Of a DNA stretch of 64,000 nucleotides, positions 595-62,730 are shown piece after piece (position 1 is the stretch's first letter; the number at the start of each line of letters is the position of its first letter). Source of the DNA: Gordius sp. MW1 (taxonomy: Eukaryota > Nematomorpha > Gordioida > Gordea > Gordiidae); contig OZ038526.1 in NCBI GenBank assembly GCA_964036665.1, forward strand, positions 36,456,001 to 36,520,000, read 5' to 3'. A model generated the notes under the pieces. That model did not search any database, had not been told where the DNA came from, and saw only the letters and a list, made by a program, of their open reading frames with translations. The position numbers and the translations under genes are program-made.

Positions 595-2125
595 TAACGA
601 GAACATGAATGACCACATTCACATTGGAAAGATATAGAAGAATTTAAATGACATTCAAATTAATTGATATGGATCCAGAAACAAAAAGGGGACAGAATAT
701 TCAGGTTAGCAGTAGCATTTAATTTAGTCCTCAAAAACAATTTATTCAAAAAAAAATGTCATTCACTTAATAACATACAAGAGTGACTCTTTATTAGGAG
801 ATTGACTATCTCTTAATATTAACACAGAAATTAAAAAATATACGTAGGGTGAACCTGGTGAGGTCATTGGAGCTTACAGATATGCTGTGATAGACTATGT
901 TATATTATGTGAAAAACATTTAGGCTGATGAAAAAAATGGAAAGAAAGTTTAAAATACTCACCAAAATGCAAGTTTTTACCTGGTGAGGCAAATGCAGTT
1001 TTAGAAAGACTTTTTTGATGGACTATATTTCTAAGACTTAAACGCAAAACTGAAGAGTTAAATGAAGGTTATTACTACCAAACATAATCAGTAGCATATA
1101 GATGATTATTACAGCACCCAACATGTGAAGGTCTATAGCCAAATTTACTTGGTTGGGGAAAAGTCATAGAAATAAGTCTTAAATGGATAATTTCAATAGA
1201 TGACCTATAGGCAGGTTTTAATAAGGAACTATGATGGCGGGATCAATCGGTAAGAGATCTCATTAAAAGGAAGAAAACTCTATGTAGACGTGGCAAAAAT
1301 CAAAAAAGTCGGAGTAATAAGAGTATAAGGAGGCAAAGAGAGCTGCAAAAAAGGCCGTTGCCATAGTGAAGAATGCCGCTTACACCAAGATGGCACACAT
1401 ACTGGACCATAAAGGGGGAGATAGCCTTATGTATAAATTGGCCAAGATAAGGGAGAAGAAAAGTAGCGATGTTGGAGTTCTTAAAATAGTCAAAAACGAG
1501 AAGGGTCAAACCTTATTCTAGCCGAAAGAAGTGATGGAAAGGTGGAAAGGATATTTTAAGAAACTTATGAATATTGCAAATGACAAGGATTCCCTTCCCA
1601 AAATTGAGCCAAATATAAGTATGGTCCAACTCTTTCAGGATGATGAAGTTAGGACACAGATGAACAAGATGCAAAAAGGAAAAGCAAATGGCCCAGATGG
1701 AATACCTATGGAAGCATTGCTCGGATGTCGTGAAGAAGGAGTCACCACCATGACAAACCTCCTTAACAATATATTGGTAGAAGAGCTTGCTAATTTTTTG
1801 ATACTTATGGAAAGGGTATTAGTAACAAGGCTGATAAAAGAGGGGAATATATCAACTACCCAATTCAGATTTGTGGCTGCAAATCCACAATATACCCAAT
1901 CTTCGCACTAAGACAAATGATGTATAAATATGGTAAAAAGAGAACGAATCTACCTTGCGATTTAATATGGTGGTGTCTGAGAAAACAAAATATCCCTGAC
2001 GCATATATAGGGCTTATCAAAAAATATTCATGAAGCCTCAAACTCTTGCGTTAGGACAAGAGTTGGAGACTCTAACCCTTTTCGGGTTAAATTTGGATTA
2101 CATCAAGGATCTTCTTGAAGTCCCT
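595..2125 (+). pseudogene. RTE-type LINE relic (endonuclease end and start of reverse transcriptase)
   Basis: Degenerate plus-strand remains of an RTE-like non-LTR retrotransposon. Short in-frame blocks near 660-700 (MDPETKRGQ) resemble the end of an RTE endonuclease domain. A longer block at 1318-1900 carries EVMERWKGYFKKLMN and the hallmark KGKANGPDGIPMEAL of the RTE reverse transcriptase. At 1905-2030 a block with RQMMYKYGKK and PDAYIGLIKKYS follows in another frame. Several stops (for example just before 1524) and frameshifts break the frame, and the copy stops abruptly where the Helitron-like repeat begins. It is a dead, truncated copy. The same family recurs at 31.98-32.29, 43.7-44.5, 47.3-47.7 and 55.8-58.1 kb. 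Confidence 0.75.
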
Positions 2126-6903: not shown

Positions 6904-33316
<26,413 letters not shown>

Positions 33317-45099: not shown

Positions 45100-45875
45100 A
45101 TGGATATTCAAGAGGTAATTTGTTTCTTTTCTAAAAATGTTTTTTAATTTATATACTCACATAGACTGCTAAAACTATAATTATAGGTATATTATTCCAC
45201 CAATATAAACTTAATATACATCTTAGGTTAATCTTGGTTCATTAATTTTAAATATAGATATTATCAAAATCCGTTATAACGGATGATTATTTACGTAAAG
45301 ACAAGGTGCCAAATTATTTGGAAAGTAAAAGGCAAATTAAAAAGGCGAAACGAGTATTTTGATTTAATGTTAGTATTTTACTTTTTTTTAGCTGCAAAGG
45401 AGTTTAACAAAAGGCAATAAATGGTATAATATGCCAGCAACTGAACAAACACCTGAAGTTAAAAATGACTTAACTATAATGAAATTATGTTCTGCTCTCT
45501 ATCCTAAGTTGTATTATAAAAAGAATGACTGGAAAGAATTGCCAAAATATTATCAAGTTTTCAAGCTTTGTATATTTAATAATTAATTTAAGATAGGAAC
45601 TGTAATGGATAATCCTTTTGATTTCTATTCTGGGAGATTGACAAAAAAACAGCGTAAACAAACTATATGTGAACAAATTTTAGCTGACAAGGATTTTCAT
45701 GAGTAATTTATAATTAAATATAGATTTCTAGTCAAAATAATTTTTTGCTTTTACATATATATATCATTGTCATTTTTGTAGACATTTTAACAAAAAATAT
45801 CAAGAAATGAAAGATTATGAAGAGCAGCAGAAATTTAAAAAATACAGAGGAAAGCATAGAAGCAAAAACACTTAA
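45100..45875 (+). CDS. Fcf2/DNTTIP2-type pre-rRNA processing factor
   Basis: Nucleolar factor of the small-subunit processome in yeast (Fcf2), with metazoan DNTTIP2 carrying the same C-terminal domain. Exons: 45258-45353, 45392-45556, 45593-45702, 45782-45875 (TAA at 45873-45875), with introns of 38, 36 and 79 bp. The protein reads KSVITDDYLRKDKVPNYLES, then the Fcf2 signature LTKGNKWYNMPATEQTPEVK, LYYKKNDWKELPKYYQIGTV, FYSGRLTKKQRKQTICEQIL and HFNKKYQEM, ending in a basic tail. A tiny first exon, ATG at 45100-45114 (MDIQE, donor GT at 45115), is possible and would give 159 residues, but this start is uncertain. AATAAA lies at 46023-46028. Frame and splice sites are intact, so this is a real gene; exons too short for ordinary ORF detection. 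Confidence 0.85.
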
Positions 45876-46104
45876 TAATTTTTATTTAATTTACACTTGA
45901 ATAATTATCCCAAATCTTTTGCTAAAATTAAGACAGTTCTATGTATGTATGTATATTTAAGAAGGGTATTGGTTTTTTTTTGCTGAGAAGCAAACATTTC
46001 TAAATATAACTTAATTTGTAGCAATAAACATTATTAAAACAGATATAAAAGTACACAAAAAATATAGAATTTAAGCTAAAAGACATCCCAAATATCATTT
46101 GCAA

Positions 46105-46560
46105 GAAGTGACCAGCTATCTGCGAGGGATTTGAAGCAAAAAGTTAGGTAAATATCTGACATTTTGCAATTCCTGGCCATATAAACAAACTGCCTGATCT
46201 ATAAATCCCTGAGCATGAGGCACAATGAATATGTTGGCTGGAATGAGAGCTAAGTCTTTGGATGTTTTGTGGTCATCTTTTAAAGTCAGAGCATGAAAGT
46301 TTAACTTCAACGGGGCCAAAAATGTCTATACAGTTCAGTTCCCATCTAAGGGGTAGACCACCTTGCCAGGGGGTAATAGTCGCCTTCTTTTCCAACAAAA
46401 AGATGGATGGCTCTAAGATTGATGATACGCTGGTTTTTCAACGGCAGCCTGGATGAGTGACTGAATTTTACTCTACCTTCTATACCTATATTTGTTATAT
46501 AGACAATGTAGGGGGTGCCTTTAAGCCCACCAGTTGGGAGCAATTGGGACAGGAGAAAGG
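46105..46560 (-). other. Unidentified coding-like minus-strand frames
   Basis: Two open frames on the minus strand (46346-46543 and 46116-46319) look protein-like, with blocks such as TPYIVYITNIGIEGRVKFSH and NIFIVPHAQGFIDQAVCLYG. A stop and frame change separate them. I do not recognise the family. They may be a decayed host gene or an unrecognised part of the LINE next door. Confidence 0.3.
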
Positions 46561-46569
46561 TTTAGATGA

Positions 46570-46745
46570 AAAGTATTCCCAGTCTAAAGGCAATGGGTAA
46601 TATAAGCTATGGATCCTCTTGAACTGGGATAAGCTTCTAGTTAATCATGACCTGATCCTTTAGAAACCAAAGATTTTAGGTTGAAGTTCTGGCGGGCATT
46701 GCAGCTTGATAAGAGGTAATAAATATAGTAAATGGGGTCCCTTTG
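46570..46745 (-). pseudogene. R2-like LINE fragment (minus)
   Basis: The minus strand reads NFNLKSLVSKGSGHD, a stop, then LEAYPSS, parallel to CNLKSLAFDGSGHEWLEAYP at about 5,207-5,265 in the plus-strand relic. Short decayed fragment. Confidence 0.65.
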
Positions 46746-47213
46746 TTCACGTTATTAAACATCTGGAACCAACCCAATGGATGGATGGTTTATTACATGG
46801 TGTTGTAAATGTGTCAATTAAGTCATGGACAGATTTAAAGGTTAGAACAATGAGATTGAAGCAGTTTGGTATATACCTAAAGCGCTCGCCTTAGTAAGTA
46901 GTGCAGTTGGGGCAGAATGTTAAATTTTATAATATGATATGTTTGCAATCATTGAACTTTTGTGGCCGAGCAGCAAACATTTTGACTGATAGTCATCTTT
47001 TATTTTCTAAATTTAAACTATTTGACAGTTAATACATATTTTTAAATATTTTTGTGAATGTGAACTATTAAAAGATATCCGCTATGCTGTGAGGGCGTAA
47101 AAATTTACGATAGACATTACTTCAATTTTATAACAACAGGGCCATCTAGCGGACGCAAGAAAGATAGTATTAGCTTTAATATATTTGATAACATGTTCTA
47201 TTGCCTTTAAATC

Positions 47214-47295
47214 ATGGGCGTAGCCAAGGGGGACAGAGAAAAGCGGCTGCCACCCCCTCTAAATCCAAAAGTTTGTTGAAATTTATTAAAATTAT
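47214..47295. mobile_element. MITE family 2, half copy
   Basis: Left terminus ATGGGCGTAGCCAAGGGGG and core AAATTTATTAAAATTATTAC are present. The element stops where RTE sequence begins. Confidence 0.6.
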
Positions 47296-47299
47296 TACT

Positions 47300-47705
47300 A
47301 ATGTGTAATGCGCGACAAGAAGATGCCAATGAGAGCTAATCCTTATAAATTCACCGCAAGACTGGTGTTATTCTATTGAAGTGAAACATGGCCATTAGAC
47401 GCCACAAAATCGAAATTATAAGCCACGGAGCTGAGTATGATTTGGTAAAGCTTAGGGTATGAACCAAAATGGGTAATCAGCCTATGGTGGACTGGATTAA
47501 GTTAAATCGGCTAAGTATACTAAGAAGGAAGGCGAATGATGTAATTCAAAAAGTATTGGGCATGGAGATGCTAATGATGATAAGAAGGACCTCATGTCAC
47601 CTGGAAAGGGCAAGTAAAAGTTTTGAAATTTAAGAAGCTACATCCGGACATGGCGCTTACCCGATCGAGATGAAAGAAACATATCAAAACCATACGACTA
47701 TGGGA
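47300..47705 (+). pseudogene. RTE LINE 3'-terminal fragment (plus)
   Basis: Plus-strand C-terminal RTE blocks in shifting frames: VTWKGQVKVLKFKKLHPDM and ALTRSR (47,595-47,680), preceded by WIKLNRLSILRRKAND-like residues near 47,490-47,540. Equivalent to the fragment at 32.0-32.3 kb. Confidence 0.7.
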
Positions 47706-47709
47706 CCTA

Positions 47710-48070
47710 CATGATAAAAAAGAAGATGTGACATTTTCTTTATATAAATTCACTGTAAATAAATTGTTAATGCCATACTCCTCATTAATTAAACATTCAC
47801 TATGAGGATAAAAATACTCTTCGCCCAAATTGATATTGAAAAATATACTAGAAAGATTTTGACCTAATGGTCGGTAAGTAAAACGTCTGTTCCTTGACTT
47901 CAACACTATACATGAACACATGATAAAACTGATGTAGTTTTATGTACTGATGAATTTTCATTTTAAAATTAAGTCCATCCAAATCCAATGACCTCTATTT
48001 TTCATATTTAAAAATTAATATAAAAATACTTGAATTATACCACAGCCCCTACATGTCCAAAATAATTGGA
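47710..48070 (-). other. Unidentified coding-like minus-strand segment
   Basis: Minus-strand open frames include FTYRPLGQNLSSIFFNINLG and EEYFYPHSECLINEEYGINN (47,760-47,885) and, in another frame further upstream, RSLDLDGLNFKMKIHQ (about 47,945-48,000). Residue use looks protein-like, but no family is recognised and no splice model was settled. Confidence 0.25.
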
Positions 48071-48722
48071 TAAAATGAAAGCAATTTTGCATTAATCAAT
48101 GCACCCTTAATAATTTTAAAGGTCCATCTTCTTAAATAAAATGATTAATAACTGTCAAATAACCCTAATCTAATTGTGCATATTCAAACAATTAACGTTA
48201 GAATATTTAATATAGCTAATTTAATGTTAATTATTAAAATGTTAGGTTGTCTAAGGCAAAAAGATTTAATATTATATAGACTCACATTATCCTAGGTAAA
48301 TACAAAAACACATGGCCCGTGTTGGCTATTGACCCGTGTAACAAATAATTTTTATTTATATTATTTTTTTATGCTCGTTTATTGTATATTTCATTTATCA
48401 ATTTTACCAAAGAAAATCATTTTAACAAAAAAAAAACACCATTATAAATTTTAGTGACTTAGCAAAATCTTGATAAAAGTAGAGACATGCTAATTCAAAT
48501 AAGTTTTTATGGCTTATACAAATCAATTATAATTAACAATGTGTGGTTTTTTGCTATTAATCTAGTTAAAATCATTGGCTATATTAAAGCATTTCAAACA
48601 ATATATAAAAAGATTTATATATAATTACAAATTCACAATATAAATGATAAATAAAAATAAATTGGGGTACATATATTGATAATAATTATTTTGACTAAAA
48701 TTAATTAGCATAAATACATATT
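48071..48722. other. AT-rich spacer, no gene recognised
   Basis: No exon or known repeat seen. It probably includes the 3' UTR of the minus-strand Chibby gene near its right edge. Confidence 0.5.
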
Positions 48723-49161
48723 TTAAATACATTTTTTTAATTTACGGTATTCTTTTTCTTGCAATTGATATTCAGCAGATAATTGTGTGAGCTAAATACT
48801 AATTAATTCAATTTTATTTATATACCATATTTATCAAAATATCAATCTTTATACGAAGAAAATTGTTTATTTCCTTTTGTTTAGTATAATCAGACTTATG
48901 GTTAGAAAGTGCCATATTTTTATTATCTATATTAAAAATAAAAAAGTTAAATATTTCCAAACCTGAATTTGTCAATAACCAATTGTTTTTTTCAAATGTT
49001 AATTTATAAGAATCTAAATGAAAGGTTAATTGAGATTCAGGGATCACATTCTCTAAATATTGATTAAAAAAATCAACATTTTGACCTAGCATTTTTGATC
49101 TTCGTGGTGGAGGTTTACGAAGTGTATATTTATTTCCAAATAAAAAAGTAGTCAAAGCCAT
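48723..49161 (-). CDS. CBY1: Chibby (CBY1) homologue, three exons
   Basis: Small coiled-coil protein of the ciliary base/distal appendages; in vertebrates it also binds and antagonises beta-catenin. Minus-strand exons: 49161-48963, 48926-48826, 48791-48723; introns of 36 and 34 bp. The product is 122 residues (human CBY1 is 126). The N-terminus FLFGNKYTLRKPPPRRSK parallels FFGNTFSPKKTPPRKS, LTFEKNNWLLTNS parallels LKFENGQWIAETG, and EINNFLRIKIDILINM, continued across intron 2 as LTQLSAEYQLQEKEYRKL, parallels the C-terminal coiled coil of Chibby. Intron 1 is 36 bp, in frame and stop-free, so an unspliced reading adds 12 residues; the spliced spacing fits the family better. The start is set at ATG 49161; an upstream in-frame TTG is not needed. 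Confidence 0.88.
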
Positions 49162-50024
49162 AATAACTACTTCCAATATCAATAATCTATATAATCATTT
49201 TTAACAATTGTATCGATTATTGGATTTTTCATATGGTATATGATGCATTGACGACGATGGCTATACTTACCATTTATTATAGTAAGCTTAAATTTTTTCA
49301 ATGTGCGTTTCTTATAATTATCATTAAGAACACTCGTTTACGTGGCAAGAACAGCCATTTTGTTAAACAAAATGGATAACAAATATAACAAACTTTTTGA
49401 GGGTGCAACCTTAAATATTGAGTGTCATATTATTGATAAACGCGGTATACTCGTATTCTAATTATAATTCCTCAACAAATTTTTTAAAAATTTTAATTTA
49501 AATTAATAAATGGTGAATTTTAAGTTACTTTTTATAATTATCAAAAAGCATCAAGGAAATCAAATACTTTAAACAAAATTACTTACTTTATATTAAATTA
49601 GTTTTACGTCATATTTTAATGTAATATAAAATTACCTACGAAATTTTATTGACAAAGTTGGCTGAAAACTTCTATGTGTTAAATACATTTAGATAAAGAT
49701 TGTAATAAGCAATTTTATATAAAATGTATTGAGATATTATTAATCCATAATTGTACTACAAATTATAACTTTATTTTATAATATTAAAAATATATAAGAT
49801 AAACACATTATTTTAGTATATTTGGTTCTAATAGAGGTGGGAGAGATTTTTTGACCTCAATAGGGTTTCTTTCCTGCTTAAAGGTAACCAAAGATTGTAT
49901 AAATAACATATTTTAACCTACTGGCATCTTGCCTTCACATAAAAGAAGAATTTTAATAATTTGAATTTAATTACTTTATAAAATTCTTGGCAGGGGTCAG
50001 AAAATCTTATACATATTTGTCCTA
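49162..50024. other. Spacer upstream of Chibby
   Basis: AT-rich. A short plus-strand frame begins at ATG 49,371 (MDNKYNKLFEGATLNIECHI, 28 codons) with a good start context, divergent from Chibby. Nothing links it to a family and it may be chance. Confidence 0.4.
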
Positions 50025-52160
50025 AAAGTTAACCACCACCCATACCAACAAAAATTCACAAAATTTCACCAAAAAGAAACAAGTGAGACCCATGAAAAAA
50101 AATGATTGATCTTTGGCCGAGAAACGATTCATTTATTTTCCGCTAAAAAATAATTTTTTGCCGGAAAATGTATATTTTAAGCTCAAAATAGCCAAAAACT
50201 GGGGCAGAAAAGTAAAATGGATTTTGGCTTATGGCCGGGGTTAGACAAATTAATTTAAACACCGGTCATTAGTATATTTGCGGCGTATATTACCGCAAAA
50301 TCGTAATTTGGCCGGGGTCAGAAAAATTAAAAGTGGGACGAGTTTCAAAAAGTAAGATTAACGGAAATAAGCAGCAAAAATAAAAGCAATTTAAAAGGTT
50401 TTTGACCTTGGGTCAGGATCAGATATTAGAAGTAGGCACGGACATCATTATTTGATAGGGAATTATTTAGCTAGTTTCGCAATTATCCGTTATAAAACCA
50501 CATCCTAGACAAGTTGCCACAAATATATTTATATAAAGGTAATGAGTTGTGCACGAAAACATAAATAAAATTTGGGCGCTGGGGCGGGGCGATAGTCTAA
50601 AAAGTTTAAGCCAACCGCTAAAGCATAAAAGTCTTCCAGAAGGTTAAAATTCCACAGCCATAAAACCTGTATAATTCACAACAGTTTTTAAATTAAAATT
50701 AAAAGTTGGACAGGACCGGACGAACGATAGACAAGCAAAAGTGAATGCATATACTACATAGCAATTTATATAAAAGTAATAAGTTGGGCAATAGACAATA
50801 ATGGAACTTGAATTCGGGTGAAGCCGAAAATATTTATGCTGACAAGCGGTCGTTAGCAAGCCTATATGCAAGAGCAAAATAAAAGTTTTTTTCATAAACA
50901 CAAGTTTCCACACCCCTCAAAATTCAGTATCAGTTTCCAAAAAAAAATTACTAATTAGACAAGACAGGACAGGGCGGACGACCAAAAGCGGGCCCATAAT
51001 GTGCATAGCAATGAAAAATAGGCCCTTTGGAATCAAATCTGTTCCATATATCTCTCGTGAATATAATGAAAATTATTCAAGCTACCTATCAAGTAAAATC
51101 CATAGATTTACATAATAGTCGTGATAGTAAATTAATATTTTCAAAACCCTGATACCACATTAATGTGAATGGGTTTAAAAAAAGAAGAAAAGCCTAATGA
51201 TAACATTTTATCAATCCCTTTTAAAGCTTTAATAATCCTAAATTTTTTTTTTTTTGAATGTATATATTGTTTATTTGAACGTAAGAACATTATAAAAACG
51301 AAGTGTCAAAATTCGAAAAATATAGCGGATGTAAAACAAAATAAAAATATTATGATTCAAAAATGTCGCATGTGTCATCTTGTAAAAGTGGCCAACTGTC
51401 GGCCAGGGATTTAAAATTGTACTTAGCTATAAAAATACCAATTTTTTGTTTAAGTAAAAAATTAGTGGAATATTTAGAGGGCGGGCAGATGGGGAAGGGG
51501 GTCCCTGGGTTGACGTTGGCAAACTTTGAGTTTGATGAACCACATATAAAAATTAATATTTTAAATTAAATTATTAATTGCTATGTTACCTATAGGACCG
51601 TATTTCGTTATCCGTGCTGTCCTGTCTAACTTTATAATTTCTATGGATAATTATATAGGTTTTTAATGGCTGTGGAAACTTGTGCTTCTGGAAAATACTT
51701 TTATTCTTTCTCATAGAGACTAGCTAATGACCGCTAGTTGGTTTCGATTTTTTCGACCTCGCCCAAACCTAAATTCTATTTTTTCGTTTTTGGGCTTGAT
51801 TGATCACCTTTATATATAAATTTCTTTAGTCTAGGTTGTTAGGTGTATAACGGATAATTGCAGAACTGACTAAATAATTTCCTGCAAATTAATGATGACC
51901 GTCTCTTTCTTCTAATTTGTCTGACCCTGGCCCGAGGCCAAAATCTGCTTTTCTTTGTGCCCACAGCTTTTGGTAGTTTTGGTACCTTAGCTTCAAATAT
52001 AAATTTTTCCTTCAAAAAATATTTTTTTGGCTGAAAATAAATAATGACCGTTACTCGATCAAGGTTCTACCATTTATTCATTTTCTTGGCCTCATTTGAT
52101 TCTTAAATTTTTGTGATTTTTGTGGGTGTGGGTAACTAACTATTAGTAGCCGTTTTAAGG
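50025..52160. repeat. Large inverted repeat with Helitron-like ends in the loop
   Basis: The left arm (about 50,025-50,700) and right arm (about 51,600-52,160) are diverged reverse complements. Matched blocks include CAATTATCCGTTATA (50,482-50,497) with TATAACGGATAATTG (51,855-51,870), and GGTTAGACAAATTA (about 50,240) with TAATTTGTCTGACC (about 51,912). The CACAGCCATAAAACC segment at 50,652 pairs with AATGGCTGTGG at 51,666. A third partial copy lies at 50,790-50,940. The loop has inverted Helitron-like 5' ends (GGACAGG repeats, GGGCCCATAATGTGCATAGC). Confidence 0.7.
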
Positions 52161-52169
52161 GCGGCTTGA

Positions 52170-53640
52170 ATTAATAAATTGGATTTATGGTGCCTAACAT
52201 ATTTAAATTTGTTTGCAAGGCAGTGTAGAGGGGGCCTGGCATATTCGTCTACTATAATAAAATTATTCCGACAAGAGAACTCTTTGGTGTAACGACAACC
52301 TTAAAGCTATGGAATATAAAAGCTCAAGGTCAAGCAGCATTCCCAGAAGTTTGCTGGGATATGCTTCACACTCGTGACCGGATCTATCAAAAGCGAGGGA
52401 TTTAAGGTTGTAATGCTGGCTATCATCGCTGCTCGATAAAAGTTAATCAAAGGAATGCCATATTCGTCCAGAATCCCAATCCATCTTTATCGTACTTTGA
52501 GGTTGTCACGGGCGTGACATTCAAATTTCAAAGCTCCAAGGCTTGAGTTAACAGAGGGTCGGACTCATGTGTAGTGACTTTAAAAATTAAATTTTCTATT
52601 TTAAAAGAGGATATAAAAGCAGCTAGCGATATGCTGCCCGGAGGACGATTTCTAATCCTCCTGATTTGGTTGGTAGGTACGCTTGAAGCCAATTGTTGGT
52701 GTTAAATTCTAAATTTAAAATTTTATCCAATAAAGTTTTTAGAAAGCCTTCGTACGACTTTAAATCTTCTGGGTGTAAAAATGCACCAGATGAGCGAAAA
52801 CAATGATTGATTTTCGAAATAAAATAGTTTTTGATTTTGTAAAAAGAGTGGTGTGCGGGCAAGCATTTTAAAAGTTCCGTTTTAGATTTTTAAATTTCGA
52901 GGCTCTTATGAAGAATTTTCAAAAGAGATTTTTCACCGCCAATGGGTGATACCAAAAGGATAAGTTTTCTCTCTCTAAAATTAAAAAAGTTTTAAAAATT
53001 GGCAAGTGAATAGAGTTAAAGCCTGATAAATTTCACATTTTTTCGAATTTAATTTGAGATTTAGAGTGGGTTCGAAATTATAGCCTCACTGCGGCCACAT
53101 AGGGTGGCGTCGTTGAGATACCAAACATGCAAATCGAGGGTACACTGAGATGATTTGCCTTGACTAAATTATGGCTGAACAAAATAAAGGAGAGCCTAAT
53201 GGATCTCCTTGTTGGATACCTTCGGACGAGTCTATGACGTATTCGCCGAATCAAAGCTTGGTTGTAGAACCATAGCTTTATAAAATGTAATTTGAAAATT
53301 GTAGGAATTTTGCTAAAAAAGTGTTTATAACGTTTTTCTGCGAATGCTGCTAAAGGCATTGGCAAAATCTAATTTAACGAAGCAGGACTCGGTGGGAATA
53401 TGCTGAAATATGATCCGGCGAGCATGGCTGGCTGCCTCACAGCCGCCTTCAATTCCGAAGCCAAGTTGATGAGGGCAGAGCTTGGCGGATAAGGAGGGTT
53501 TTATAATCTGCAGAGTAGTTTGGATATAATTCGGCGAAAAAGACTTCCAATGGGAATGGGTCTAACTGAGTTATCCGGCATTTTGATGGCAATTAGTTTC
53601 GCACCGAATAAAATAGGATCATTTCACGAGGTAATTTTTC
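52170..53640 (-). pseudogene. R2-like LINE reverse transcriptase relic (minus)
   Basis: Second copy of the element at 4.06-5.87 kb, reversed. The minus strand carries the equivalents of CCGGTCACGAGTG (52,380 region), HHSFYKIKNYFISKINHCF and LHPEDLKSYEGFLKTLLD (52,700-52,862), NNWLQAYLPTKSGGLE, and the upstream RT region around the QLGFGI block (about 53,440-53,480). It is truncated at its 3' side by the inverted repeat. Frames are broken in several places. Confidence 0.78.
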
Positions 53641-53751
53641 ATTAACAAGAAATATGTATTACTTAAATTAATTCATCGTGTGCTTATTTTGTTAATAATA
53701 ACAAAATTAATTTTTTTATGGTTAAAATATTTATTTTCACGAAAACAAAGT

Positions 53752-54912
53752 TAGTTTGAACCCGCCCAAAATAAAATCGGGTTCGTGTTCGGGTTTGGCA
53801 TAAATTTTAAAATCGGGTTCGTGTTCGGGTTTAAGGAATTGGGTTCGGTTCGAGTACAGGTTCGGGTTCAAGAAATTATATTATACTAATAATACATTTT
53901 TACCTTCAAAAAATTATTGAATAGTTAACTTAATTTTTAAATAGCACCTAATTAAATTCACATGCCAATTATTTCATCTCATTGTGCTTATGTATTTATT
54001 GAATTTTTATTGTTTTTAATTTATTTTTGGATTTAAAAGCAATAAAAATATAATTAATAAAACCCATACCATATTATAAATTACACAAAAATATTTTTAT
54101 TCGACGTATACTTCACATCATGAAATATAAATACAGTTGACACATAAATTATGTATATAATTTTGATATATTATTTAATCTTACAATTAAAACGTCTTCT
54201 AAAATTTGATCAGTAATTTGTGATCTATAAGTTGATAGAATAAATTATGAGGAAAAAGCTCTTTCCACGCTAACTTGGGTAGGTGGAACAACCTGGGCTA
54301 ACTTATAAATCTTGGGATGTTCATGTTTATTTTTATCCCAAAATCTCTAATAAGTTCTCATCTCGTCCAATTCTATTTTAATCTAAGAACAATGTCAAGA
54401 GAGAACCTATACTTTTTCCTGCACTTTTAACATTTCCCATATTAATAATTTTACTTTGTTCTTTCATTCTTAAAAGCTTCTCAAGCTTATCCGTTTTACC
54501 AGGCAATGATAATTGTATTTAATCACTAGAATCATTACAGACATTATTTAATACCTCCAACTTCCCCCAAATTTTAAGGAAATGTATTTTAGCTATGTGA
54601 ATTTCTTCCTCGGATAGTAGACATTGATAACTACAAATAATTCTTGAGATAATTAGTATCGATTAATGAATGAAAAATGCCGGAAACATAAAAATATTGA
54701 AATTACAATCGTATGGTTTTCGTTACATTGTCATGATGGAGAAAACTGAGATATTCAATTCACAATATATTTTTGAATTAAAAACCCGAACCCGAACCCT
54801 TTTTTGTATTTATCGGGTTCGGGTTTTAAGGGTATTTTTAAAAATGGGTTCGGGTTTTGTAAAACATTGTGTTTTACCCGGTTCGGGTTCAGGGGTTCGG
54901 GACAAACCCCTG
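53752..54912 (-). mobile_element. hAT-like element, CGGGTTCGGG subterminal repeats
   Basis: Both ends carry CGGGTTCGGG/CCCGAACCCG repeats (53,775-53,875 and 54,784-54,905); the right end is GGTTCGGGACAAACCCCTG. In between, the minus strand reads KIYKLAQVVPPTQVSVERAF then QITDQILEDVLIVR (about 54,190-54,320), the hAT C-terminal dimerisation domain. The left terminal repeat is decayed and no target duplication could be confirmed. Confidence 0.75.
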
Positions 54913-54959
54913 AGTTACATATATAAGCGTAATATAAAAAAAACATAATGGTTAAATAC

Positions 54960-55050
54960 AATCATTATCTTCTAAAATAGGCCAAGAGTTGGCAAAGGAT
55001 CCTAGTTGTTGCCTAAGTAAAAAGGACGCGGAAATTTTAGACGGTTTTTA
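54960..55050 (-). pseudogene. R2-like LINE 3' end fragment (minus)
   Basis: CTAAGTAAAAAGGACGCGGA then AATTTTAGA corresponds to the reverse complement of 5,770-5,830 in the plus-strand relic (LSKKDAEILD in the antisense reading). Under 100 bp remain. Confidence 0.6.
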
Positions 55051-55759
55051 GTGATATGAATTATGATAACTTCGTTATTGTTAACGATATTTAATTATTA
55101 TGTACATATGTATTCCTTGTGGAGGGATACCACGTCTTTTATGTAGCTGTTATTAAATTAGCATGTAAATTAGAAATAAAACAAATTACAAATTAAACTA
55201 AATCATTACACGATTGAGAGTTTTAAATGCTTTCAGGTCGGGTTTGAGTTGGAAAAAGTGACTTTGCAGGTCTCTAAACACGGATGCTGTGTTGGCTCCG
55301 TTGACGTCACTAAGATTAGGGGAGAGAGACCAGGCGGCGTGAAACGCGCGTGGGGATCAACGAGACAAAAACAATGGGCCGAAATATACGGGAACAACGA
55401 TGTTTTTCGGGGATGCCGTTCCCTTACATTCCACGACGTGCTACCTTAACTCGACTCCCGCCCCAGTCCTCTTAATGTCAAGCTTAACAAATGATTTTGT
55501 CCTCCTTATTGATGCTGGCCGATATTTCTTTTATCTTTGCTTCTTCTATCTATCTCTTATTGTTCTATTTTCATTTTACACCGGTGCTATAATATGTTTT
55601 AATGTCATGTTTTCCCCTCCCCCTATAACGTCTACATACACTAACGCACATTCTTCTTTCTATGACTGTTTGTCACGTAGGCTGGTGGTCAGTCCTTTCA
55701 GCATTGTTTCCATTTGTCTCCTTTAATTACATAGATCTTTCTTTATCTTGTGGACTTTC
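55051..55759. other. Repeat-like spacer
   Basis: 55,250-55,450 is unusually GC-rich for the area (GGGGAGAGAGACCAGGCGGC), with a 66-codon frame of no recognised family. 55,450-55,750 is T-rich. Possibly further transposon sequence. Confidence 0.35.
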
Positions 55760-58140
55760 ATATCGTGCCTTATTTTATAGATCCAGGTAAGCTTCCTCTC
55801 CTTTGTTTTCCTGCGAAATTTATCATCTCAATTTTCTTTCCGACGTAGCTATCGTCCCTTCTTTCGACTTGGCCATACCATCTTAGTCTGTTTGTTAGGA
55901 GCTTTGTCGTAATAGATGTAGTACCCACTTCATTTCGCTTATGTTCCTTTTTGCTTACTCCTATAACCCATCTTATCATTCTCATCTCCATGGCCGCAAA
56001 ACGCTGCTCTTCTCTTTTGCGTATAGCCCAAGATTCCGAGCTATACAGGACTGTTGGTTGTATGATGGATTTATACAGTGCACTTTTTAGTCTTCTTAAG
56101 ATGTTTTTGTCACAGAGAACGCCTGTCAAGTCCCTCCATTTGAGCCATCCGGAATTTATCCTTGCTTGGATTTCTTTCTCCATTCCACCATCCGATTGAA
56201 GTGTTGATCCTAAATAATTGAAGGAATCCACGCTTGTAAGTTGCCAATCGCCTAATGTAAGGGATGCACATATCTGATTTTCATCTTATTTAAACTTTGT
56301 CTTCATGTATTCTGTTTTCTTTATCTTTTATTGATTTTATTTATAATTCTGGCAAATTGTTTTCTTTAAGACATTTCCACACTAAAGTACAAGGAACTTT
56401 ATCGAACGCTTTTTCTAGATCGATGAAGCACATGTGCAAATTCTCCTCCCTTTCTCTAAACCGTTCCTTAATTTTCTAACACTGTTTAGGGCGTCTGCTG
56501 TAGACCTCTCCGGCATAAATCCGAATTGGTTATCTCGAAGAACCAAACTCTGAAGCCATTTTTCGATCACTTTTTCCCACACCTTGAAAGTGTGACTCAT
56601 AAGCTTTACCCCTCTGTAATTGTTACAATCTTGAATGTCCCCTTTCATCTTATATATCGAGATCATGTAGCAATCCCTCCACTCCTTAGGCCTTTTACCC
56701 GTTCAAGATATTGTTGAAAAGTTTGGCGAGGAATTGTGCACCAGTATTGCCTAACGCTTTAAAGCCCTCTATTGGTATATTATCTGGTCCAGGAGCTTTT
56801 TCTGACTTTAGTTTACCCATAGCAACTTTGAGTTCTGTTTCCGTGACCCAGTCCGCTGTTTTTATTTATACTATTGTATTTTCCTGGTTAATGTCTTCGA
56901 CTACAGGCTCCTTTTCAATTGATAAATCCCTATAATAGTCGTACCATCTTTGTAGTATATGGCTGTCGTGTGTTAGTATTTCTCCCTTTTGACCCTTGAT
57001 TAACCGGCATTCTAGGTAATCTTTAGAATTTCGGGCCGTTGACTTTGCGATTTTGTAGATCAATCTTTCTCCTTCCTTTGAGTTTAGTTTTACATTTATA
57101 TCGTCGTACACCTTGCTTTTGCTACGAATTTGTTAGCCGATCTTTTAGCTACTTGGTAAGCTTGCTTATCATTCTATCCTTGCTTATATACCAAACTTTG
57201 TTCTATCTCTTCTTTTCCTTGATACATTTTTGCACTTCTTCATTCCACCACCACGTCTCCTTGAGAATTTAGTGGGCCTGCTTTCACCTAGTATTTGTCG
57301 TCCCGCTTTTCGCATTGTGGCAGCTATACCATTCCATTGATCCTCACATGAAGTATTTTCCTTAAATTCAGCATGTTTAATTACTTGTTAATGTTGGATA
57401 TTATCCTTTAGTTTCCTCCATTGTATAGTAGCCGCTACTCTTTGTACCTTGCCCTTATGCCCTTTAAGATAAAGTCCATCACCAACAGTTTGTGTTGGCA
57501 GACCAATATTTCACTCGGTGTTACCTACATTTTGAACATACTTTAAGTGCGTTCTGTTGACTAAAGAGAAAATATGAGTGGTACGGCTGCCGCTTTTGTA
57601 CTTTATAAGATGTTCCTGTCTCTTTTTGAAGAAGGTATTTCCTATTGCTAGGTCAAAAGCTTGAGCAATTTCTTAAATTTTCGTACCTCCTATATTTCTT
57701 AGGCCGTAACCCCGACCACCGTGATTTCTTTCAAATCCTCCCCTTGATTTGCCCACGTGTCCATTGAGGTCCGCTCCCATAATTATTAGTCTCTCTTTAC
57801 CGAATGGGATAGAATAGCTTCAAGCTCCCTCCAAAAACAATCTTTTTCCGCCTCAGAGCATCCACTTTGAGGGGCGTATGCTGATATAACGTTTATCGTA
57901 GTAGATTTATAACAAAGCTGTATCGCCATAATTCTGTCATTGATTTTTTTTACCGTCGCCGACAGTTTGCCGAGTTCTTTCGATAGCACTTACCGACGCC
58001 ATTCCGATGCGTTTCTGTACCGTAAAAATATAATTTGTATCCGTCACCTATGTACTTTGCTTTTTGGCCCTTCCATTTGGTCTCTTGTATACAAGCGATA
58101 TCAAATTTTCTCCTCTTGAGAACGTCTGGATACATGCTAA
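55760..58140 (-). pseudogene. RTE-type LINE, longest copy, frame-broken
   Basis: Minus-strand element in the order endonuclease to reverse transcriptase. 58135-57950 reads KRRKFDIACIQETKWKGQKA; 57989-57786 includes INVISAYAPQSGCSEAEKD (endonuclease). 57111-56866 is the linker with ILQRWYDYYRDL. 56666-56415 reads CNNYRGVKLMSHTFKVWEKV and NQFGFMPERSTADAL (reverse transcriptase). 56231-55770 reads FNYLGSTLQSDGGMEKEIQA, QPTVLYSSESWAIRKREEQR and NRLRWYGQVERRDDSYVGKK (C-terminal part). At least four frameshifts or stops separate these, so it is inactive. Most domains remain, unlike the other RTE fragments in the window. Confidence 0.85.
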
Positions 58141-58700
58141 AATATATTAGATTAATGAGCTGTCATAGAGCCATGGATTGAAATTTTATTGGATTATACA
58201 ATTTCCATGGTGATTTTTTGCTTGGTGTAAAAGAATTCTTAGGGATCGTGTGTAATGGGAGTAATATTTAATATTTGTTTAAGGAACTCGCTGCCATAGA
58301 GACCTAAATAGTTGAGTGTCGTGGCTACTATTGGGACAAATGATATTGCTGAGGTATTTGTATTTTTCCACTTTCTTTCTCTCAGGAGAAGAGATAAGGT
58401 GGGGATAGGTGTTAGATTTGCCGAATATATATTTACCGTAGTGAAGTCCCAACAAGCTTTAAGCCGCGGGCCCACGGGATGATTATTAAGCCGTTGGGTA
58501 TTTACCGTCAGTGGATCTTAGGCATAGGGTTTCCTGTGAGTTGGGAAAGCCGGCTTTGTTAAAAATTGCCCGATTATTTTATTTATTGTGGAATGACGGA
58601 GATGCCACCCCTTGCTCTATTGGCAGTGAAAGGATGAAGGCCGCTTGCTAGAACGGGTTAATAGACTCTAAAAAAAGGAAAACAATGTTTTGGAACACGC
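58135..58700 (-). pseudogene. LINE 3' sequence fragments
   Basis: 58,135-58,240 matches 9,124-9,240 (ATGCTAAAATATATTAGAT). The minus-strand frame 58475-58239 ends with ISFVPIVATTLNYLGLYGSE, resembling the F.P.V.E..G..G segment of R2-like LINE C-termini. Decayed. Confidence 0.5.
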
Positions 58701-58839
58701 ATTGTAATCTTCCTTTACATATAGATTATTTGCGACAAATCGAATTAAGAATTATGGATTTTTATATAAAGACTATAATTATTAAATATGCGTCATATTA
58801 TTTGGATACGAGATTGTTTTTAGGCAACCATATTGTCTA

Positions 58840-59056
58840 TTTAAAAGTCAGATAGCCAATTAACACCGTTTGATTTTGAATAATATAACAATCTACGATT
58901 ATCTTGCCTCCAATTAATATGTATATAAATATTTAACAAGGAGAACTTCATATTGTATCTACTAGTCTTATTCCAGCAATTATTTTGAACTGGTGGATGT
59001 ATATTTAAGAGATCATTTCTTTGCCTTTTTGGCAAATGCGCATATCGCTACCTAGA
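58840..59056 (-). other. Candidate small-gene exons (unidentified)
   Basis: The minus strand reads RYAHLPKRQRNDLLNIHPPV and QNNCWNKTSRYNMKFSL after a possible acceptor near 59,057. Removing a putative 30-bp GT..AG segment (about 58,908-58,937) continues QDNRRLLYYSKSNGVNWLSDF-like residues to a stop. The composition is protein-like but no family is recognised. Could be chance. Confidence 0.25.
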
Positions 59057-61446
59057 ATTGTAGTGATCTATCTGCAATTTTAGAAATTTTAAATTAAAAG
59101 TGCTATTCGATGGATTTTTATATATTTAATCATACATTTATTAAAAATGTGAAAAAAAAAGTTCTGCTTCTTTAAGGTTGTTATTTTGCTCTTTTTGCAA
59201 ATTTCAATTCTTTTTAGAAATGTTATGCTCTATTTGCAATTACCCAATCCCAAACGCTTATTTAAACACTTGAACAAATCGTCTGCTTTTAAATCTTATT
59301 TCGCCTAATGTCGCTACAATTACTTTATAATTGGTGTCAAAAAATGATAAAATTAGATTTTTATTGGATGAAGTTATGTAATACTAATAAAAATAATATA
59401 GTTTAGGGTGATAAATCAAGAAATTAATTATAGTTGCATTCAGACAAATCCAATGGGCTTTATTTATACACTATGATAGGTACTCATAATTGTATGCTTT
59501 GTATATAATCTTTTATGGAAAAAATGATATTGATTTATTGTTATGGCCAAAAAAAAATTTTCTAGTTATAGGGAATTTTTTTTTAAGATTATGTAAAATT
59601 AATTGTCAAGAGATATAAATTCACAAGAACTATTTGTTTGAAAAATAATATAATGCAAAATACATCTGTTTGATATTTATATTGTATGTAACATTTACTT
59701 TATAGTTAATAAATACAATAATGATATTTGTTGATTATAGTATGATTTAACATGATACAAATTGGCCCCTGTAAAAAAATTTTGCTTTATAAAAATAAAG
59801 ATGATTAAGATTGTAGCATATTTCATTAGGCTGATTTAAATTTGTTTTAAAGTTTTATTTTTACTATGCGTGTTCATCCTAGCCTCCTCCTCGCGCTTTT
59901 GGCTGATCATTGTCACTCCATAAAAAATATGTTATTTTTAAACCGTATTGTACGAATTATTATTATTGTTAATCCGCGTTGTTATTATTGTTTATCTGAG
60001 TGGTACGTGAATTGGTAATTTTTGGGAATATGTTCATTAATAAATTGTGAAAAAAGACGAAAAAATTTCTGATTGCAAAGTTTAAATATAGTAAAAAGGT
60101 TATAAAAATTATTTAAGAATTTAATTATTACATTTATCCACTCAAAGATGTTTTAAAGTATAATGGTTTAATTTACCAGAATACACATGCTCAATTTTCG
60201 TTAAAATATTTTATAGTTTTAAATATATTTAAGTTCTAGGAGCAATGTAGTTATTAAAATAAATATTTAATAATCTTTTATTATTTTGTTATAATAGCTT
60301 AAGTCATTAATTTAATAACTATAAAACCTTAAAATTTGCGGTAAAAAAGGCAGATATAGCAAAGTAGTTAAATAAAATCGCAAAAAATTTAGAACTTTGC
60401 TCTATCTGAAATTTAAAATGTTCATTTTTAGATAAAAAAAGAAAGAAAAAATTCACTTTTTGTCTAAACAGATGCTATTAGTTTATATTATCAAACTTTA
60501 ATTATATAAATAGTAAGTTTAGGTTTGATAGCATTTCAAACTTTGAACTCACTTATCCCAGTTTATAGTTTTGTGCAGGTAGAGCACTCCAATTCTCGGG
60601 TAGCGATATATAAAGCACATGATAAAATAAAATATATACATAAGTGTTGAAAATGTAATTCAACGGTGCAAATCTATCCTAAGCCAATGCCAAAATGGAC
60701 AATGCGGCTTACTGCAAAAACTTTTCTTAACTAAAAGTATAAGGCCGTAACCCTCGCAGAGGAACTCCACGTAATAACAGGACCATCTCTTATAAGACAT
60801 TTTTATCCAGACCGCCTAATGCATTAAAATTTTAAAGCCTGACAGAACTAATCTTCTTAGTATAATGGCAGGTGCAACTCGTGTTAACTTGCCACACACG
60901 ATTTGTTACAACAAAAATAATTGTTATGCTAATCGCCAAGATTATTTTTAATCTACATAATAGATGGCGCTGTTTATGAGCGTGTAGACGTTTTTGTCTT
61001 ATTTATTATTAAAGTGTGATAAGTATATAAATATCCTAATTACATGTTTAAAATATATTTTATATACAATACACAATACGCTTCTGTTCAAAATATATAA
61101 TATATTAAACACGAAATTATATAATTAATAAATACAAACTATTTGGTATAGGGTGGTATATAATTACGTGTAGAAAAGCAATTTATACATACTTAATATA
61201 TTTAATACTAAATTATATAATTAATAAATACAAATTAGTCTGGTAAAGGGTAGTATATAATTACGTGTAAATAATAAACTATATGTAATAATATAAAAGC
61301 AATTTATACATATTTAATATATTAAGTACTAATTTGTTATGGCTGTCGTTATTATGAACTCTAGTTGTTTTGAACATGATTCATACAATATTTAAAAATG
61401 TACTGTTATGCCCCTAAAAATATGACTATTTTTTGAACTGATAGGG
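59057..61446. other. AT-rich spacer upstream of CHMP2A
   Basis: No gene recognised over about 2.4 kb. 61,075-61,335 contains an imperfect direct duplication of about 130-150 bp (AAATTATATAATTAATAAAT, then GTATATAATTACGTGTA, then AGCAATTTATACATA-type blocks) just upstream of the gene. Confidence 0.5.
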
Positions 61447-62730
61447 ATGGGTAAGACTTTGTTTAAATTATAATATACACATTCAGACCAAATTTTTGGT
61501 AAAAGAGTAACACCTGAGGAGTTGCTGAGGAAAAATCAGCGAGCCTTAAATCGAGCGATGAGAGATTTGGAGCGGGAACGCACGAAAATGGAGCAGCAAG
61601 AGAAAAAAGTGATTGCAGATATTAAAAAAATGGCTAAGGACGGGCAAATGGTTAGTTTTCTGTTAAAACCTAATTAGTTTATAAGGATGCTGTCAAAGTT
61701 ATGGCCAAAGATCTTGTCAGGACACGTCGTTATATAAAAAAATTCATACTTATGAGAGCTAATATTCAAGCTGTTTCACTCAAGATCCAATCAATGCGAT
61801 CTCAGAATGCTATGTCTGAAGCAATGAAAGGTGTAACAAAAGCTATGCAATCCATGAATAAACAAGTATTATATCTATTTAATAAATCAAATTAAAATTT
61901 ATTATAGCTAAAATTACCTCAAATTCAAAGAATTATGATGGAATTTGAAAAGCAAACAGAGATAATGGATATGAAAGAAGAGATGATGAGTGATGCCATT
62001 GATGATGCTATGGGAGCTGATGAGGATGAAGAGGAGAGGTAACTAATTGAAGTTCCGTTTTTATTGATTACCTTAAATAGCAGTCATAATTCGAATTTTG
62101 TTACCAATGTTGTTCAATATCTTGATATTAGTTAATAAATATTGTTGACAGTTTTTAAAGTTATGATTCCAATTTGTGTTTTATGCATATAATATCCTGC
62201 ATATTGTATCTATTGTTCTAATATATTATTATATTCATAATTGTTTTTATGAATTCTTCTAATTAAACTATAATTAAAAGTATTTAATGATGAATATGAA
62301 AAAAAAATGTTGTATAACTTAAGGAAGATTTTGTTAACAAACAACAAAGGTTTATTATAATATGTTTTTTGCCTTGATTAAATTTAAACTTTCAATTTGT
62401 AGTAATGCTGTAGTATCTCAAATCTTAGATGAACTTGGGATTGAAATGTCAGAAAAGTTATCAGGTATCTTATATTATTTGGTAAATTTTTAATATCAGT
62501 ATTAAACCTTTTGATTTACAAATTTATTTTTCACATATATACAAGGATTGCCAAGTGCTAAAGACACCATATCATTACCAGCCTCTGGGAAATTGAGTAA
62601 ACTTCCTTTAGCCTCAGGTGGAGGCAATCCTGGCATTGGTGGTGGTGGAGCTGCCACTGGAATTGCCCCAGAGTCTGCTGACATTGATGCTGATTTGGAA
62701 GCTAGGCTGGAAAGGCTTAGAAGAGAATAA
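61447..62730 (+). CDS. CHMP2A: Charged multivesicular body protein 2a (VPS2), ESCRT-III subunit
   Basis: Core ESCRT-III subunit that co-polymerises with CHMP3 and recruits VPS4 for membrane scission. Exons: 61447-61450 (ATGG only), 61487-61650, 61686-61865, 61908-62038, 62403-62464, 62546-62730; introns 36, 35, 42, 364 and 81 bp. All junctions keep frame and give 241 residues (human 222). The N-terminus MDQIFGKRVTPEELLRKNQR parallels MDLLFGRRKTPEEMLRQNQR. The basic core VMAKDLVRTRRYIKKF, MRANIQAVSLKIQSM, MKGVTKAMQSMNKQ, the acidic DMKEEMMSDAIDDAM, and a C-terminal MIM1-like helix DADLEARLERLRRE are all present. A Gly/Ala-rich stretch of about 20 residues before it accounts for the extra length. 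AATAAA overlaps the stop (62726-62731). Confidence 0.95.

What the first reader, a model, noticed from the sequence alone, without database searches (positions are those of the whole stretch)
45354..62038. Introns of 34-42 bp in three of four host genes
Seven introns in Chibby (36, 34), the Fcf2-like gene (38, 36) and CHMP2A (36, 35, 42) lie near the practical lower limit for spliceosomal introns, while no ACC intron is below 78 bp. Each removal restores a conserved protein alignment. This suggests a lineage-specific short-intron class with a tolerant spliceosome, and it explains why these genes escape simple ORF calling.
Basis: partly seen in the sequence, partly recalled or inferred. Interest (0 to 1): 0.72.

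Follow-up and report, generated by a model that had tools for sequence, protein, structure and literature searches.

The report
Tiny introns near gene starts
This animal genome carries a real class of very small ordinary introns, about 34 to 43 bases long and bunched toward the starts of housekeeping genes, a pattern already described in flatworms but seen here in an animal whose mitochondrial code says it is not one of the usual flatworms.

Summary
Keeping any of six of them truncates the protein, and removal gives gapless alignments to solved orthologues where these reach. Chibby intron 1 is the weak one: no stop, only 1.7 bits of homology support. A home-made gene finder found a sharp class in other, hand-picked loci: 41 of 169 predicted introns are 34-43 nt, 5 are 44-53 and 4 are 20-33. 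GT-AG beat 99 decoy dinucleotide pairs. Short introns bunch toward gene starts. Against a uniform class: the modelled part of ACC has none, and 1 of 31 estimated kinase introns is below 75 nt. Flatworm 'microintrons' (peak 37 nt, 5'-clustered) are published (PMC6530080). But the mitochondrial code here is table 5 with AAA=Lys, which argues against a rhabditophoran flatworm. No special or 'tolerant' spliceosome is shown.

The parts
45267..45876 (+). 3' part of the Fcf2/DNTTIP2 gene (exons 45267-45353, 45392-45556, 45593-45702, 45782-45876 with stop; upstream exons not resolved)
   Evidence: Pfam Fcf2 110.6 bits; gapless to DNTTIP2 chain 7mq8_SQ up to query residue 131, past all three junctions
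45354..45391 (+). Fcf2 intron, 38 nt, GT-AG
   Evidence: junction inside the gapless alignment to DNTTIP2; retained: stop at aa 32 of the 151-aa model
45557..45592 (+). Fcf2 intron, 36 nt, GT-AG
   Evidence: junction YYQ/IGT inside the gapless alignment to DNTTIP2; retained: stop at aa 94
45703..45781 (+).
   Evidence: junction inside the gapless alignment; retained: stop at aa 122
48723..49161 (-). Chibby gene, three coding exons (49161-48963, 48926-48826, 48791-48723)
   Evidence: Pfam Chibby 53.9 bits, cut-off 24.8
48927..48962 (-). Chibby intron 1, 36 nt, GT-AG; frame-neutral, weakest of the seven
   Evidence: 53.9 bits spliced, 52.2 retained; retained protein stays open to its normal end
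48792..48825 (-). Chibby intron 2, 34 nt, GT-AG
   Evidence: 39 bits read through, 53.9 spliced; retained: stop at aa 104
61447..62730 (+). CHMP2A gene, six coding exons, 241 aa
   Evidence: Pfam Snf7 165.2 bits; 236 bits and gapless to CHMP2A chain 7zcg_B for residues 8-153
61451..61486 (+). CHMP2A intron 1, 36 nt, GT-AG
   Evidence: retained: stop at aa 9; upstream of the PDB chain and of the Pfam match, so not covered by an alignment
61651..61685 (+). CHMP2A intron 2, 35 nt, GT-AG
   Evidence: junction gapless to 7zcg_B; retained: stop at aa 65
61866..61907 (+). CHMP2A intron 3, 42 nt, GT-AG
   Evidence: junction gapless to 7zcg_B; retained: stop at aa 126
62039..62402 (+).
   Evidence: junction inside the Pfam Snf7 match; retained: stop at aa 161
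62465..62545 (+).
   Evidence: retained: stop at aa 190
   Evidence: 24 predicted introns of 219-2636 nt between 11230 and 33316; likely earlier exons near 7.3-9.0 kb not modelled

Best explanation
The seven segments are spliceosomal microintrons of the ordinary GT-AG (U2) type, members of a length class of about 34-43 nt that is common in the genes sampled from this genome. They are very AT-rich and bunch toward the 5' end of housekeeping genes, while introns further downstream run to hundreds of bases. They are most likely removed by the normal major spliceosome through intron definition. [quoted passage not shown] The peak with its sharp lower edge would then be set by spliceosome geometry plus a bias to deletion and selection for compact 5' regions, and longer introns are those that escaped or grew. 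Shown: position, sites, frame, homology, length class, 5' bias, presence of U2 and RED genes. Inferred: splicing in the cell, intron definition, the helper factors and the evolutionary cause.
For: Exact junctions; six of seven give a stop if retained. PDB alignments: DNTTIP2, CHMP2A, and three gene-finder models from other loci: TCP1, gapless over residues 2-545 and so across 11 introns of 40, 38, 47, 199, 160, 513, 368, 433, 1142, 741, 248 nt; CCT3, first 326 residues, with 37, 36, 35, 39, 40, 57 nt first; CCT2, 302 residues. Length class: 41 of 169 predicted introns at 34-43 nt. GT-AG first of 100 dinucleotide pairs. 13 of 18 predicted intron-bearing models have at least one intron of 30-50 nt. 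5' bias: Spearman 0.65 between CDS position and length over 29 Pfam-anchored introns, within-gene permutation 23 of 5000; 38 short introns in the first half of the intron order against 9 in the second. 32 matches to U2 RNA; RED_N in four pieces at one locus. Mechanism papers: PMC6692369 and PMC8363638 (passages).
Against: No RNA data. The gene sample is biased: CCT/HSP60, Snf7 and proteasome loci were picked by Pfam; seven other 10-kb stretches gave one model above score 40, with introns of 165 and 94 nt and none short. Five of 18 models have no intron of 30-50 nt. Kinase genes show 1 of 31 estimated introns below 75 nt, though a short intron bridged inside one match would be missed there. The RED gene's own match pieces lie hundreds of bases apart. 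HSP60 (L040) has its short introns late in the model, against a strict 5' rule. Short introns do not have better 5' splice sites than longer ones: +5 G is 26% against 27%. No branch-point motif stood out. Chibby intron 1 could be retained. Some of the 169 pooled introns come from wrong models.
Confidence: 0.88

Rival explanations
1. Some of the segments are not introns but retained, in-frame coding insertions or alternatively spliced pieces (exitrons), Chibby intron 1 above all.
For: Chibby intron 1 is 36 nt, has no stop and costs only 1.7 bits when kept.
Against: The other six truncate the protein if retained, and the junctions inside PDB alignments are gapless. Chibby intron 1 has GT-AG ends and the size of the class.
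Confidence: 0.1
2. The short class is an artefact: the gene finder patches frameshifts, assembly errors or pseudogenes with small GT-AG gaps.
For: In AT-rich DNA, GT and AG are always near, and some finder calls are doubtful (for example 29, 30 and 32 nt).
Against: Decoy dinucleotides give far fewer short gaps on average and lower scores; the TCP1 model aligns gaplessly to a solved TCP1 chain over residues 2-545; several short introns in one gene would need as many coincident errors.
Confidence: 0.02
3. The animal is a flatworm with an unusual mitochondrial code (for example a catenulid), so this is simply the published flatworm microintron class.
For: Same peak (37 nt), same 5' clustering, same population of long introns as Opisthorchis; microintrons in other flatworms too (PMC6530080).
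Against: Two of the five AAA codons of COI, one of them the lysine recalled as the K-channel lysine, align with Lys in the solved chain, and conserved Met sites use ATA, unlike the rhabditophoran code (table 9; its use in rhabditophorans is recalled). A catenulid is not excluded.
Confidence: 0.15
4. The spliceosome of this lineage is truly altered (for example changed U2, SF3b or Prp8 contacts) so that it accepts shorter introns than other animals.
For: Degenerate 5' splice sites (+5 G 26-27%, +3 mostly A or T) in both length classes.
Against: Ten U2 matches span the whole model at more than 149 bits; introns of similar or smaller size are reported in flatworms and dicyemids.
Confidence: 0.1

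Closest known systems
Flatworm microintrons (Opisthorchis felineus; also O. viverrini, Clonorchis, Schistosoma, Echinococcus, Macrostomum; PMC6530080)
   Same: Peak at 37 nt (a second short peak at 90 there) beside a broad class of long introns; clustered together and more frequent at the 5' end of genes
   Different: Mitochondrial code of table 5 with AAA=Lys; splice sites not nearer to consensus than in longer introns and T content before the acceptor not reduced (small sample), both unlike the fluke report
Dicyemid introns (PMC2222250, PMC6543705)
   Same: Very short, uniform spliceosomal introns in an animal
   Different: Mean 26 or median 27 nt and the main population there; here 34-43 nt and only part of the introns, with others up to thousands of bases
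Orthonectid introns (Intoshia linei, PMC6543705)
   Same: Short spliceosomal introns in a bilaterian
   Different: Median 57 nt there; here the peak is near 36 nt
Human ultrashort introns; SPF45- or Smu1/RED-dependent short introns (PMC8363638, PMC6692369)
   Different: Human ultrashort introns are 43-65 nt and a small fraction; here about a quarter of the sampled introns are 34-43 nt

Membership tests
U2-type spliceosomal intron | GT-AG ends | tested here: met
   all seven; GT-AG first of 100 dinucleotide pairs in 10 loci
U2-type spliceosomal intron | removal restores the reading frame and a conserved protein | tested here: met
   frame: six of seven; homology across the junction for Fcf2 1-2, CHMP2A 2-3 and Chibby 2; CHMP2A 1 outside the alignments; Chibby 1 inconclusive
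U2-type spliceosomal intron | major spliceosome RNA present | tested here: met
   32 U2 matches above the cut-off
U2-type spliceosomal intron | recognisable branch site | tested here: inconclusive
   YTAAY in 28 of 53 short introns, scattered at 6-33 nt from the end; no clear enriched motif
U2-type spliceosomal intron | excised in mRNA | not testable with these tools
   no RNA reads available
Flatworm-type microintrons | sharp length peak near 37 nt, separate from long introns | tested here: met
   41 of 169 at 34-43 nt, 5 at 44-53, 4 at 20-33; hand-picked loci, not genome-wide
Flatworm-type microintrons | clustered at the 5' end of genes | tested here: met
   Spearman 0.65, permutation 23/5000; 38 against 9; HSP60 is an exception
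Flatworm-type microintrons | splice sites closer to consensus than in longer introns | tested here: not met
   +5 G 26% in 19 short, 27% in 15 longer introns; small sample
Flatworm-type microintrons | loss of the polypyrimidine tract | tested here: not met
   T fraction at -15..-4 is 0.52 short, 0.46 longer; small sample
Flatworm-type microintrons | host is a (rhabditophoran) flatworm | tested here: not met
   COI: AAA at two Lys-aligned sites, ATA at conserved Met sites, AGA at a conserved Ser; that rhabditophorans use table 9 is recalled
Dicyemid-type introns | introns mostly about 26-27 nt | tested here: not met
   lengths 34-43 nt, and 103 of 169 introns above 100 nt

The most novel reading that the evidence does not exclude
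An animal outside the rhabditophoran flatworms has, by itself or by older inheritance, the same gene architecture as flatworms: a 36-nt microintron class bunched at gene starts and long introns behind. This would mean that 5'-clustered microintrons arose more than once, or are ancient in Spiralia or Bilateria, and that spliceosome geometry plus transcription position, not flatworm biology, sets the pattern.
Probability: 0.6. Interest if true: 0.6.

Novelty: new member of a known kind. Interest (0 to 1): 0.42.

Why it matters
[quoted passage not shown] The 5' placement is a second lead: it links intron size to distance from the gene start. There is also a practical point: annotation with too high a minimum intron length would break these genes, as the fluke paper warns for Clonorchis.

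Tried and rejected
Rejected: that the short gaps are pseudogene or assembly damage (decoy test; gapless TCP1). The first gene-finder run failed on import, the next, without an intron exit cost, gave nonsense and was replaced. Branch-point motif search gave no clear answer. Species: a paper search on assembly and mitochondrial size found only two pepper papers. Arthropod cuticle family PF00379 gave no candidate, but the control genomes were silent too, so this is only a hint. ATP6 lies on the mitochondrial contig; chaetognath mitochondria lack it (recalled), so a chaetognath is unlikely. Kinase gap estimates used 76 of the 145 rows, those I judged to be from multi-row genes. The anchored set used 52 of the 57 rows. 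PF00225 and PF00063 did not complete (tool busy), and RF01960 was not repeated. No identity percentages were computed for the CCT proteins.

Papers: PMC6530080 passages and section 9 in full; PMC8363638, PMC6692369, PMC2222250, PMC6543705, PMC12460157, PMC13149111, PMC11649378, PMC7653826, PMC10675955 passages only; all others only as search listings. In their listings I saw no non-flatworm animal with a 36-nt 5'-clustered class, but few of the searches aimed at that and most subscription papers are not held.
Full report
What was checked. The window is G000:C8:36456001-36520000 of an unnamed 211.8-Mb assembly in 12 contigs. The seven short introns were located exactly: Fcf2/DNTTIP2 45354-45391 (38 nt) and 45557-45592 (36); Chibby on the minus strand 48927-48962 (36) and 48792-48825 (34); CHMP2A 61451-61486 (36), 61651-61685 (35) and 61866-61907 (42). 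The same genes also have introns of 79 nt (Fcf2), 364 and 81 nt (CHMP2A), which the finding does not mention. All ten begin with GT and end with AG.

Are they introns? The spliced proteins match Pfam Chibby (53.9 bits), Fcf2 (110.6) and Snf7 (165.2), all above the curated cut-offs. Against solved structures, the Fcf2 protein aligns to DNTTIP2 (7mq8_SQ) across all three junctions, gapless up to query residue 131, with one single-residue gap beyond the last junction. CHMP2A aligns gaplessly to chain 7zcg_B over residues 8-153, across introns 2 and 3; intron 1 lies upstream of that chain and introns 4 and 5 downstream. Keeping any one of six short introns produces an early stop. The exception is Chibby intron 1: it is 36 nt, has no stop, and keeping it lowers the Pfam score only from 53.9 to 52.2 bits. 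Reading into Chibby intron 2 drops it to 39 bits.

Is it a class? I wrote a small gene finder with a codon table taken from Pfam-matched exons, splice sites reduced to two dinucleotides, and a nearly flat length prior, then retrained it (one search failed and one search was faulty). In nine CCT/HSP60 loci, three Snf7 loci and two proteasome loci it finds short introns in most models: TCP1 40, 38, 47, 199, 160, 513, 368, 433, 1142, 741, 248; CCT3 37, 36, 35, 39, 40, 57, 282, 67, 987, 139, 135, 71, 332; the CCT-family gene in L039 36, 39, 39, 41, 217, 2214, 1033, 375. Over all 18 intron-bearing models scoring at least 40, 13 have an intron of 30-50 nt and five have none. Subunit names were checked against PDB only for TCP1, CCT2 and CCT3. 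The TCP1 model aligns to chain 9fqr_IZ over residues 2-545 with no gap, which checks all 11 of its introns. CCT3 residues 1-326, which cover its first introns only, align with one single-residue gap next to the 57-nt intron, whose length may therefore be off by three. A 302-residue stretch of CCT2 aligns with a four-residue insertion that is not at an intron.

Chance and decoys. With the untrained two-base model in 10 loci, GT-AG gives the best total score of 100 donor/acceptor dinucleotide pairs (714; others mean 519, sd 69) and 31 introns of 30-45 nt against a mean of 5.3 for the rest. Over 169 predicted introns in models scoring at least 40, 41 fall in 34-43 nt, 4 in 20-33, 5 in 44-53, 3 in 54-63 and 4 in 64-73; 103 exceed 100 nt. 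Some of the 169 are surely wrong, among them the six of a spurious model that joins LINE-like pieces. Seven other 10-kb stretches gave one model above score 40, with introns of 165 and 94 nt.

Where they sit. Among 29 introns with Pfam-anchored exons on both sides, length rises with coding position (Spearman 0.65, p = 1.4e-4; within-gene permutation 23 of 5000). Over the predicted models 38 short introns lie in the first half of the intron order and 9 in the second. HSP60 is an exception. The modelled part of ACC has no short intron: 24 predicted introns of 219-2636 nt; its 5' part was not modelled. Protein kinase matches give 1 of 31 estimated introns below 75 nt, though introns bridged inside one match are invisible there. 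So the class depends on gene and position and is not uniform.

Sequence features. In 19 short (up to 50 nt) and 15 longer (over 60 nt) introns of the six checked genes the interior G+C is 13% and 23%; the donor shows mostly A or T at +3 and weak G at +5 (26% and 27%); T before the acceptor is 0.52 and 0.46. No branch-point motif stood out in 53 short introns. The genome has 32 U2 RNA matches, ten of them above 149 bits, one U12 match of 51.7 bits just below its cut-off of 53, and a RED gene, whose own match pieces lie hundreds of bases apart.

Mechanism. I read these as ordinary U2-type introns removed by intron definition. [quoted passage not shown] the two intron helices in the human B complex are about 21 nt apart (PMC6692369, passages). 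SPF45 replaces U2AF on human short introns with truncated tracts (PMC8363638, passages). A 34-43-nt intron leaves about that minimal gap, which would explain the sharp lower edge. This step is inference; splicing itself has not been observed here.

What is known. Opisthorchis felineus has short-intron peaks at 37 and 90 nt; introns below 75 nt make up about 34% of its introns and they cluster together at the 5' end of genes; [quoted passage not shown] Dicyemid introns average 26 nt (PMC2222250, passages) with a median of 27 nt (PMC6543705, passages). The kind of thing is therefore known.

Which animal? The mitochondrial contig C12 (14,798 bases) carries COI. Of its five AAA codons in the stretch read, two align with Lys in the solved chain, one of them in GIKIFSWL (recalled as the K-channel lysine); conserved Met sites use ATA and a conserved Ser uses AGA. 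That is invertebrate table 5, not the flatworm table 9. ATP6 lies about 1.4 kb after the COI match. Arthropod cuticle proteins were not found, with a silent control. I could not name the species. If it is not a flatworm, the 5'-clustered microintron architecture extends beyond Rhabditophora, which is the most novel reading left open.

Verdict. Observation confirmed with small corrections; interpretation partly supported; a new member of a known kind, with moderate interest because of the host.

Noticed in passing
G000:C8 (37.4 Mb) among C1-C7 (28.2 down to 21.1 Mb): Seven large contigs are sorted by size and the largest, which holds the window, comes eighth; this looks like a sex chromosome listed last (inference).
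   Followed up: no
G000:C8:2829490-2830827 and other places: Many nuclear copies of mitochondrial COI, one of them spanning the whole match with a score almost equal to the mitochondrial contig (408 against 410 bits).
   Followed up: no
G000:C4 near 0.36-0.38 Mb and 1.46-1.49 Mb: COI and ATP6 insertions appear in identical-scoring pairs in opposite orientation about 1.1 Mb apart: a large inverted duplication or an assembly feature.
   Followed up: no
window 55770-58136 (-) and 1321-1911 (+): ORF pieces that look like degraded LINE reverse transcriptase (family recalled, not searched).
   Followed up: no
window 23260-23691: Long tandem repeat read as LLTYLLTY in an open frame.
   Followed up: no
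G000:C3:20497474-20637421, C5:6628126-6722012, C7:4739779-4762745: U2 snRNA matches lie in clusters, some as inverted pairs about 1 kb apart with the same score.
   Followed up: no
splice donors in the checked genes: The 5' splice site is degenerate in both short and long introns: mostly A or T at +3 and G at +5 in only about a quarter.
   Followed up: partly
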